Shown here one piece after another: positions 31,786 through 43,872 of a stretch of DNA of 64,000 nt. Position 1 is the first letter of the stretch, and the number at the start of each line of letters is the position of its first letter. This DNA comes from Chitinophagales bacterium (GTDB lineage: Bacteria > Bacteroidota > Bacteroidia > Chitinophagales > LD1), in NCBI GenBank assembly GCA_016787045.1, contig JAEUVA010000012.1, positions 1-64,000 of the forward strand. Reading direction: 5' to 3'. The notes under the pieces were generated by a model, which worked only from the letters and a program-made list of their open reading frames with translations, was not told the origin of the DNA and did not search any database. The position numbers and the translations under genes are program-made.

Positions 31786-32930
31786 CTACTTCGCGTCTTT
31801 CATATAATTCTCTAATGCAGTAATAATAGTTGGATTGTTTGGCAGTGGTGCCATAAGGTGTAGTTTTAATCCCTTCTCAATAATTGCATCAGCGGTAGTT
31901 TTTCCGTACACGCCAATCTTAAGATTTCCTTGTTTGAACTTCGGAAAATTGTGAAACAAGGAATGTATACCGGTTGGGCTAAAGAACAGCAGAATGTCGT
32001 ATTGTTCTAAGTTAACATCCTTTAAATCGTTTGGCACTGTGCGATACATCACCCCTTCGGCATAATTAAAGTTATTGGCTTGCATGAAGGCCGGTATTTC
32101 ATCCTTCCGTACTTCTGCACATATATACAAAAAGCGAGTTGCGTCTCTATGCTTCATAAGCAGCATTCGCAACTCTTTGTTATTGTGCAAGTCACCAAAA
32201 AAAACTTTACGCTTTCTGTACTGTGTGTACTTCTGTAAATAAAGTGCAATAGCTTCGCTGGTACAGAAAAATTTTGTTTCCTGACTCATTTTTACACGCA
32301 GCTCTTCGCAAATACGGAAAAAATGATCAATTGAATTTCGGCTGGTAAAAATTATTCCACCGTAGTCATTCAAAACAATTCGCTGTTTTCTAAAATCTTT
32401 TCCCGGTACGCCCTCTACAGTAATGAATGGCTTGAAAGTAAACTTCACTTTAGTACGCGCTTCCATATCAAAATATGGCGACTTAGGCCCTTCGGGCTTT
32501 GGTTGCGCTACTAACACATGCTTTATTTTGGTTTTGGGTTCTTTAGAGATATAGTCCTGATAATTGGTTTCCACCCGTTGTGGAATGATGATTTGTGGCT
32601 TAGATACTGTCGGTTGCGCAGATACCGGCTTAGCAACTGTAGAGGTGTTGCTTTTTGATTTCGGCTGCTTCTTGGAACTTTTAATAAAAGAAGAAGCGCT
32701 CTTCTCAGGCGATGTCACATCGGCCTTTTTAGATAGAGCGCTTCTACTGTTGGATGTTTTACTGTCCTTGGCCTGTTTCCTTGAAACGGCTTTGCGGACA
32801 GCGGGCTTAGCGAAAGCAGCAGATTTAACTACTTCTTTTTTTTTGCTACTTTCTTAGCCGCTTTCTTCGCAGGCTTTTTAGCCGCTTTCTTGGCTACTTT
32901 TTTAGCCGCAGCTTTTTTCTTTGTTGCCAT
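31786..32930 (-). CDS. hemD: HemD-like uroporphyrinogen-III synthase with H1-like tail; frame broken at A9
   Basis: Residues from about 150 on match Bacteroidota HemD, which cyclises hydroxymethylbilane to uroporphyrinogen III: VLVAQPKPEGPKSPYF, VEGVPGKDFRKQR, IIFTSRNSIDHFF, CTSEAIALYLQKY and LLFFSPTGIHSLF are visible. This frame has no ATG upstream of that domain (only GTG at 32718). The ATG at 32930, two bases after the DUF4271 stop, begins a 33-codon Lys/Ala frame (MATKKKAAAKKVAKKAAKK...) that ends at TAG 32831. A -1 shift or one extra A at the A9 run (32836-32844) joins the two into about 381 residues with continuous Lys/Ala/Ser/Pro-rich composition. Options are programmed frameshifting, transcript slippage or a homopolymer sequencing error. 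Confidence 0.72.
32834..32846 (-). other. Slippery A9 run (A AAA AAG heptamer) inside hemD
   Basis: In the frame opened at 32930 the codons read GCA AAA AAA AAG AAG TAG. A AAA AAG in this phase is the same heptamer used for -1 frameshifting in E. coli dnaX. A -1 slip gives GAA GTA GTT and continues into the HemD domain. Nine consecutive A residues would also favour RNA polymerase slippage. No upstream Shine-Dalgarno-like stimulator or strong downstream stem was obvious to me. Confidence 0.55.
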
Positions 32931-32932
32931 GG

Positions 32933-33826
32933 TTAGGAAACTGTTTTGGTTAACAATTTGATAAATAGAAACAGCATTGCTATTTCTTGTGTACAAACGT
33001 AAATAATAAAATGATATATACTTCTGTACATCAATTTATACGATGTGGATAACACTCTCCATAACAACAATATAAGAAAAATTAAGCAAACAAACAAAGT
33101 TAAATAATACACTATGTATAAATATTTTCCGGGTGCTGTGTAAAAAACAAATAGAGCCGGAATCAGCGACAGACCGAGGGTTTTGCAAATAGTTGAAAAA
33201 ATAAATACATATTCTTCAGCAGCTTGTTTCATTTCAAAAACATATCCACTAACTTGAATGGCAAAAAGCTTTGCGATGTAAAAAAATGTGAATAAAAAAA
33301 TGAGAAAGAGTATGGAAGTGAAATTTTCTAAAGTGTTTACACCAAAAATTTTGACAAGAATAAATCGCACATACAAACTCATAACTAAAATAAAGTTAAG
33401 GTGTAAAAGAAATGATGAGAGAGTAATCTCTGATGTTTGCGTGCGAAGCACCTGTTGAGCCATATTACTGTTTACCAATGATTGCAACAAATCGCTCAGT
33501 TCTTTATTGAAAGCTGTTTTGACGTACGTAACAGCACAGAGCAAAACTACCAATACAAAAAAAACGTACTTATTACTTCCGTGCGGAGATAGCTGCTGCA
33601 CATCATACCTATGCGCTTTACCGGCTGAATTCAAAAGCAAGCTGCCGGTGTAGTTCTTCGCAAAATAATCTGACTCTATTGAGTCTTTTAAATATTGTGC
33701 ACGCTGTACAGAATCAGTATTGAAGGCAACTAACCCGGTAGTATCAGACGCTATGCTCTCTGGCAGATGGCAAAAAAGCGATTGAGCGCAAAACAACAAA
33801 CCCAAAAGCAGTAAAATATTTTTCAC
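32933..33826 (-). CDS. DUF4271 family membrane protein
   Basis: The 297-residue protein has an N-terminal signal or anchor segment (MKNILLLLGLLFCAQSLF), a periplasmic stretch of about 70 residues, then about seven hydrophobic segments between residues 85 and 295. Position and pattern match the Bacteroidota DUF4271 family, commonly found next to hemD; function unknown. It starts one base after the Omp85-like gene stops and its own stop is two bases before the hemD tail ATG, so translation is probably coupled. Confidence 0.8.
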   Translation of the reverse strand: MKNILLLLGLLFCAQSLFCHLPESIASDTTGLVAFNTDSVQRAQYLKDSIESDYFAKNYTGSLLLNSAGKAHRYDVQQLSPHGSNKYVFFVLVVLLCAVTYVKTAFNKELSDLLQSLVNSNMAQQVLRTQTSEITLSSFLLHLNFILVMSLYVRFILVKIFGVNTLENFTSILFLIFLFTFFYIAKLFAIQVSGYVFEMKQAAEEYVFIFSTICKTLGLSLIPALFVFYTAPGKYLYIVYYLTLFVCLIFLILLLWRVLSTSYKLMYRSIYHFIIYVCTQEIAMLFLFIKLLTKTVS

Positions 33827-43840: not shown

Positions 43841-43872
43841 AAAAAAAAAGGGGGCTACCTACGGCAGCCCCC
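43841..43872 (-). terminator. Intrinsic terminator of the minus-strand T9SS gene
   Basis: GGGGGCT (43850-43856) pairs with AGCCCCC (43866-43872); on the minus strand the stem is followed by nine T (43849-43841). It lies 26 bp beyond the stop at 43898. Confidence 0.88.

What the first reader, a model, noticed from the sequence alone, without database searches (positions are those of the whole stretch)
32834..32930. HemD-like gene with histone-H1-like tail split by an A AAA AAG slippery heptamer
Seen: an ATG two bases after the DUF4271 stop opens a Lys/Ala frame that ends after 33 codons. The A9 run within it carries A AAA AAG in the correct phase, and a -1 slip continues without a stop into the uroporphyrinogen-III synthase domain, whose own frame has no good upstream start. 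The composition stays Lys/Ala/Ser/Pro-rich on both sides, so the pieces belong to one gene. Known: A AAA AAG drives -1 frameshifting in E. coli dnaX, and A9 runs favour transcript slippage. Inferred: two products could be made, a 33-residue H1-like peptide and a tailed HemD. A plain one-base homopolymer sequencing error is the main alternative.
Basis: partly seen in the sequence, partly recalled or inferred. Interest (0 to 1): 0.72.

Follow-up and report, generated by a model that had tools for sequence, protein, structure and literature searches.

The report
Conserved A9 frameshift in HemD-like gene
A bacterial gene is split by a run of nine A's, so that a slip during copying or reading would give either a tiny histone-like peptide or a much longer protein; every readable relative keeps the same split, together with an RNA hairpin just after it, so it is not a sequencing error.

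Summary
All 28 readable junctions in the window's GTDB family (order Chitinophagales, 4 genera), plus 4 genomes of a second family, have the same split. A Lys/Ala-rich ORF stops 0-9 nt after a run of exactly 9 (28 genomes) or 10 (4 genomes) A's; the HEM4 frame is always -1 and closed just upstream. Different codons, in all three phases, rebuild the run; about 840 other A-runs in these ORFs never exceed 7. A HEM4 tree needs two separate origins.

Not in the finding: each genome carries an RNA hairpin downstream of the run. In the window's family it covaries and occurs at this gene only.

'HemD' is misleading. This HEM4 paralogue is kept in genomes without detectable HemC (21 of 30, including this 99.6%-complete one).

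Best reading: programmed frameshifting, more likely RNA-polymerase slippage than -1 ribosomal frameshifting, makes an H1-like peptide plus an H1-HEM4 fusion. The hairpin's role is open; attenuation is one guess. No transcript or protein data were available. A new, conserved recoding case of a known kind, with an unusual RNA element.

The parts
32933..33826 (-). DUF4271 membrane protein, upstream gene; its stop lies 2 nt before the ATG of the H1-like ORF
   Evidence: Pfam PF14093 E 1.9e-20; spacing; close spacing kept in relatives
32829..32930 (-). H1-like Lys/Ala ORF (33 aa), 0 frame, ends with TAG
   Evidence: homologous MATK... ORF in all 28 readable family junctions
32836..32844 (-). A9 run, the inferred slip site
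32835..32841 (-). In-phase heptamer A AAA AAG (possible -1 ribosomal slip site)
31786..32838 (-). -1 frame: K/S/P-rich linker and HEM4-family protein (350 codons from the junction)
31831..32430 (-). HEM4 (PF02602) domain match
32761..32802 (-). P1, weaker hairpin (GCTGTCC/GGACAGT) between run and P2; similar arms in most of the genus, not tested by a covariation count
32692..32745 (-). P2, covarying hairpin: 11-bp outer stem and inner stem
32683..32691 (-). U-rich tail after P2 (TCTTTTATT)
32716..32718 (-). GTG in the HEM4 frame, the one candidate internal start kept across most of the genus; it lies inside P2
31733..31759 (-). Terminator-like hairpin after the HEM4 stop (probable end of the transcription unit)

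Best explanation
One gene with a programmed frame change at a conserved A9/A10 run. Ordinary decoding gives a short H1-like Lys/Ala peptide (24-115 aa) that ends right after the run. Slippage that adds one A to the mRNA (RNA-polymerase realignment, favoured), or a -1 ribosomal slip on the same A's (not excluded), gives that tail fused through a K/S/P-rich linker to a Bacteroidia-specific HEM4-family protein. Shown by comparison: the split, its direction, the run length, and a conserved hairpin downstream. Inferred: that slippage occurs and at which level, that both products are made, and that the hairpin tunes their ratio (for example by ending or stabilising the short mRNA when ribosomes stop at the 0-frame stop, while frameshifted translation runs through it).
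For: Same split in all 28 readable family junctions and in 4 genomes of a second family, always -1, none in frame. The run is 9 (28) or 10 (4) A's and starts at codon position 1, 2 or 3 by genus; about 840 other A-runs in the same ORFs are 7 or shorter; the N-terminal KKK is always broken by a G. HEM4-frame start codons are not conserved across genera; L019 has none before residue 16 of the core. The HEM4 tree forces at least two origins. Covarying hairpin in the linker, one strong model hit per family genome, at this gene. A run of 9 A's or T's is known to slip efficiently in bacteria (PMC5009743), as in T. thermophilus dnaX; 11 A's give about 20-25% in C. rodentium tssM (PMC4256274).
Against: No transcript or protein evidence. 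Genomes within a genus are related, so 32 junctions are far fewer independent events. Given the amino acids and codon usage, a tail run of 9 is not rare in every group (P 0.07-0.7). Constant -1 direction is what the GeneTack rule takes as ribosomal frameshifting. Codon-position-3 excess before the first possible start is only moderate in g1 and unclear in g4 and f4g7. In f4g7 a conserved ATG at the HEM4 core allows internal starting.
Confidence: 0.85

Rival explanations
1. -1 programmed ribosomal frameshifting at A AAA AAG / A AAA AAA (dnaX-like) does the shift, rather than transcriptional slippage. A sub-rival: the programmed event is the same, the machine differs.
For: In-phase A AAA AAA in every genome, A AAA AAG in the window's. 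Direction always -1. A single tRNA-Lys (UUU) was found, the condition linked to slipping in E. coli dnaX (PMC5009743).
Against: Seven A's would do, yet 9-10 are kept in every codon phase. The first well-supported hairpin starts 21-36 nt after the run, too far for the usual stimulator (spacing of about 5-9 nt, own knowledge). Weak hairpins directly after the run are seen in some genomes only.
Confidence: 0.3
2. Two separate genes: the H1-like ORF, and HEM4 translated from its own internal start (re-initiation, or GTG/TTG/ATG in the linker).
For: GTG in 15 of 16 genomes of the window's genus; ATG in 5 of 7 of g4; ATG at the ancestral HEM4 start in all four f4g7 genomes.
Against: No start is shared across genera, and L019 has none before the core. 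The linker before these starts stays open and similar in the HEM4 frame. The GTG lies inside the covarying hairpin, which can explain its conservation.
Confidence: 0.12
3. Sequencing or assembly error in a homopolymer.
For: One-base homopolymer slip; one relative has N's at the run (L017).
Against: The same frame relation in 32 separately assembled genomes, with run lengths 9 and 10 and different surrounding codons.
Confidence: 0.01
4. Phase-variable homopolymer switched by replication slippage.
For: A homopolymer in a coding region.
Against: Not one in-frame ('on') genome among 32, although run lengths 9 and 10 both occur, each with the shift kept.
Confidence: 0.02

Closest known systems
dnaX of Thermus thermophilus (transcriptional slippage at nine A/T)
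   Same: A run of 9, slippage yields a population of mRNAs, two products with one N-terminus (PMC5009743).
   Different: There the unshifted product is the long one; here the unshifted product is a short basic peptide. No covarying hairpin of this kind is described there in what I read.
dnaX of Escherichia coli (-1 ribosomal frameshift at A AAA AAG)
   Same: Heptamer present in the window's genus; single tRNA-Lys UUU found.
   Different: Heptamer varies by genus, run length is kept instead, and the conserved hairpin lies too far downstream.
tssM1 of Citrobacter rodentium (transcriptional frameshift at 11 A's)
   Same: A poly-A run shortly before a stop; slippage makes the longer product (PMC4256274).
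   Different: Other gene, other phylum, longer run; here the split is kept throughout a family.
Poly-A frameshift gene clusters found by GeneTack
   Same: Conserved adjacent ORFs joined at an A-run (PMC3711429).
   Different: Main text names neither uroporphyrinogen synthase nor Chitinophaga; its supplements were not read.
PG0202-type HEM4 proteins, listed as specific for Bacteroidetes
   Same: HEM4 family protein restricted to the phylum (PMC1887533; class-wide orthologues).
   Different: Orthology with PG0202 not checked by sequence; no H1-like tail reported there.
Bacterial H1-like Lys/Ala proteins (AlgP, Hc1/Hc2; own knowledge)
   Same: Lys/Ala(/Pro)-rich low-complexity composition.
   Different: No Pfam match; DNA binding not tested.

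Membership tests
Programmed transcriptional realignment (poly-A slippage) genes | Uninterrupted A/T run of about 9 or more at the frame junction | tested here: met
   9-10 A's in 32 of 32 junctions
Programmed transcriptional realignment (poly-A slippage) genes | Junction and both ORFs conserved across genera | tested here: met
   4 genera of f1 and genus f4g7
Programmed transcriptional realignment (poly-A slippage) genes | mRNAs with extra or missing A's | not testable with these tools
   No transcript data
Programmed transcriptional realignment (poly-A slippage) genes | Both shift directions among orthologues (GeneTack rule) | tested here: not met
   Always -1; the rule is a guide, since dnaX uses either mechanism
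-1 programmed ribosomal frameshift (dnaX-like) | In-phase slippery heptamer | tested here: met
   A AAA AAA in all, A AAA AAG in many
-1 programmed ribosomal frameshift (dnaX-like) | Stimulatory structure about 5-9 nt downstream | tested here: not met
   Conserved structure begins 21-36 nt after the run or later; nearer hairpins are weak and not general
-1 programmed ribosomal frameshift (dnaX-like) | Upstream Shine-Dalgarno-like stimulator | not tested
   None seen by eye in the A/K codons before the run; no systematic test
Uroporphyrinogen-III synthase (HemD) | HEM4 fold/family match | tested here: met
   Pfam 1.4e-27; human UROS 1jr2 E 1.9e-5
Uroporphyrinogen-III synthase (HemD) | HemC in the same genome to supply its substrate | tested here: not met
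   No HemC in G000 or in 21 of 30 family genomes
Uroporphyrinogen-III synthase (HemD) | Curated HemD score cut-off (NCBIfam equivalogs) | tested here: not met
   Best 36.6 bits against a cut-off of 275
Uroporphyrinogen-III synthase (HemD) | Enzyme activity | not testable with these tools
   -
Histone H1-like bacterial proteins | Lys/Ala-rich repeats | tested here: met
   Sequence
Histone H1-like bacterial proteins | Match to a curated H1-like family | tested here: not met
   No Pfam match
Phase-variable homopolymer locus | On and off run lengths among relatives | tested here: not met
   0 of 32 in frame
Known Rfam element (hairpin) | Match to a described RNA family | tested here: not met
   Nothing at P2 up to E 1
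Intrinsic terminator / attenuator | Strong stem followed by a U-tract | tested here: inconclusive
   Stem yes; U-rich in most of f1 but little above codon expectation, absent in f4g7, long loop

The most novel reading that the evidence does not exclude
A frameshift-gated attenuator: a conserved hairpin with a U-rich tail ends (or caps) the short mRNA when ribosomes stop after the A-run, while slipped, fully translated transcripts run through it, so that polymerase slippage sets the ratio of an H1-like peptide to an H1-HEM4 fusion that is not a heme enzyme.
Probability: 0.2. Interest if true: 0.88.

Novelty: new variant of a known kind. Interest (0 to 1): 0.74.

Why it matters
Programmed frameshifts fixed across whole groups of cellular genes are few (prfB, dnaX and some others; own knowledge). 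This one is fixed in a family, arose at least twice by the HEM4 tree, and comes with a locus-specific structured RNA, so its mechanism is directly testable. It also indicates that the 'HemD' gene linked to DUF4271 is probably not a heme enzyme: it is kept where HemC is missing, so its annotation would mislead pathway predictions, and its real role is an open question.

Tried and rejected
Sequencing error and phase variation. A conserved internal start as the full explanation. Rfam identity of the hairpin (only a sub-threshold McaS match elsewhere). A hammerhead-like reading of CUGAUGAG in genera g3/g4: not shared by the others, dropped. A plain terminator reading of P2: tail U-content is only slightly above codon expectation and absent in the second family; the scan tool's loop limit of 8 nt would miss it anyway. 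Synonymous-codon model of the run: suggestive only. Another Lys/Ala ORF like this in the genome: none found by a protein search. Literature: no paper found on this gene's frameshift or on DUF4271 function in the held library; PG0202, a HEM4 protein listed as specific for Bacteroidetes, is probably the P. gingivalis orthologue, not checked by sequence.

Full report
What is there. On the minus strand, DUF4271 (32933-33826) is followed after 2 nt by an ATG (32930) that opens a 33-codon Lys/Ala ORF ending in GCA AAA AAA AAG AAG TAG. A -1 shift in the A9 run (32836-32844) leads into a 350-codon open frame with a HEM4 domain. The HEM4 frame is closed by a stop 9 nt before the run. The finding's description is right; it omits the strand.

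It is conserved, so not an error. A search of 60 relatives found the gene in nearly all; the window's GTDB family holds 30 genomes in 4 genera. Of the 30, one contig starts after the junction and one has N's in it. The other 28 all show a MATK... Lys/Ala ORF ending just after an A-run, with HEM4 in the -1 frame. Four genomes of a second family (f4, genus g7) show the same layout. None of the 32 is in frame.

The run itself is what is kept. It is 9 A's in 28 genomes and 10 in 4. It is built as GCA AAA AAA AAG, GCA AAA AAA AAA, (G/C)AA AAA AAA A.., CAA AAA AAA AAT or AAA AAA AAA, starting at codon position 3, 2 or 1 according to genus. The same ORFs hold about 840 other A-runs, none longer than 7, and the N-terminal Lys-Lys-Lys is always broken by a G. 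Under a model of synonymous choice a tail run of 9 has P 0.07-0.7 per group, jointly about 7e-4 taking the largest value from each of five groups. Codon bias alone is thus unlikely but not absurd; the contrast with the rest of the ORF is the stronger argument.

No good alternative start. In the HEM4 frame between run and core, no ATG, GTG or TTG is shared across genera; L019 has none until residue 16 of the core. The window's genus has a GTG in 15 of 16, but it lies inside the covarying hairpin described below. The second family keeps an ATG at the ancestral HEM4 start, so there internal starting stays possible. Codon-position-3 excess before the first possible start is moderate in the window's genus (0.43 against 0.31 and 0.30) and unclear in the smaller sets.

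Two origins. A tree of HEM4 cores needs at least two changes for the frameshift label: family f1 and genus f4g7 are separated by starred branches, though a long branch (L154) lies beside f4g7 and the bootstrap had not fully settled. In-frame Lys-rich extensions of HEM4 occur in families f16, f19, f20 and in the sister genus of f4g7. So a basic tail on HEM4 has arisen repeatedly in this order, and apparently twice as a frameshift product.

A conserved RNA hairpin. While testing the linker I found a strong inverted repeat after the run in all 32 genomes. In 8 of 11 tested genomes none of 150 synonymous resamples was as strong; L014 (1/150), L029 (2/150) and L030 (7/150) are weaker. In the window's genus 99.2% of pair cells are standard pairs, with 5 pairs changed on both sides (shuffle mean 2.2; 17 cells against 3.8), and slid controls collapse. 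Across the family 7 pairs are compensatory, 24 cells against 6.3. The structure was drawn from these sequences, so control (b) leans towards it, and the shuffles ignore relatedness; the compensatory pairs across genera are the main support. The one-sided changes that keep a pair are G-U on the sense strand, as expected of RNA. A covariance model made from 18 of these sequences (so many genomes are training cases or near them) gives one strong hit per genome in all 30 family genomes, always at this gene (G004 holds it on two contig ends), and no comparable hit elsewhere. Fold z-scores of single examples are -4.3 to -5.5 for genera g1, g3 and g4, -1.7 for g2, and -9.6 for the second family, whose hairpin is a different sequence. 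The first hairpin (P1 in the window's genus, P2 in the others) starts 21-36 nt after the run; P1 was not tested by a covariation count. No Rfam family matches.

What it does: inference. The distance makes the usual contact with a ribosome on the run unlikely, and RNA polymerase meets the run before the hairpin is made. In genera other than the window's the hairpin begins 12-29 nt after the 0-frame stop; in the window's genus P2 begins 59-89 nt after it, with P1 between. With a U-rich tail in most of the family this suggests ending or protecting a short mRNA. The U-excess over codon expectation is slight and the second family has none, so I hold this at about one in five.

Slippage or ribosomal frameshift. 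For slippage: run length at the known threshold for bacterial RNA polymerase (PMC5009743) and free codon phase. For ribosomal frameshifting: constant -1 direction (the GeneTack rule) and a single tRNA-Lys (UUU) found in the genome, the condition linked to dnaX slipping in E. coli. Given a programmed frameshift I put slippage at about 0.6.

HEM4 is probably not HemD here. The genome is 99.6% complete, has one HEM4 gene and no detectable HemC. In the family HemC is in 9 of 30 genomes, and a second, shorter HEM4 gene occurs in those 9 and in one 82%-complete genome; where both are seen they lie within about 1-2 kb on the same contig. The DUF4271-linked form is present in all 30 and as a 43-50% identical protein in the sampled genomes of the class, while outside the class only distant HEM4 matches appear. 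It falls far below NCBI's HemD cut-offs.

Limits. No transcript or protein data; genomes are mostly metagenome assemblies; relatives within a genus are not independent; E-values of the home-made model are rough.

Noticed in passing
G000:C1:54147-54333 (L148): Two tandem tRNA-Ala-like genes with an 8-nt anticodon loop (ARAGORN 'agca'), next to a normal tRNA-Ala(GGC) and each followed by the same terminator-like hairpin. Either decayed copies or odd tRNAs.
   Followed up: partly
window 31786-32535, minus strand: The DUF4271-linked HEM4 protein is kept throughout sampled Bacteroidia, also in genomes of this family without HemC; its function is open.
   Followed up: partly
L034, L039, L046, L056, L154-L160: In-frame Lys-rich N-terminal extensions of the same HEM4 protein in several other Chitinophagales families, apparently of separate origin.
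   Followed up: partly
window 43841-43849: The only other run of nine A/T in the window; it lies between ORFs, not inside one.
   Followed up: partly
L125 948-1035, G000:C36: ARAGORN calls a tRNA with anticodon 'tta' (stop) near tRNA-Leu and tRNA-Gly; not examined.
   Followed up: no
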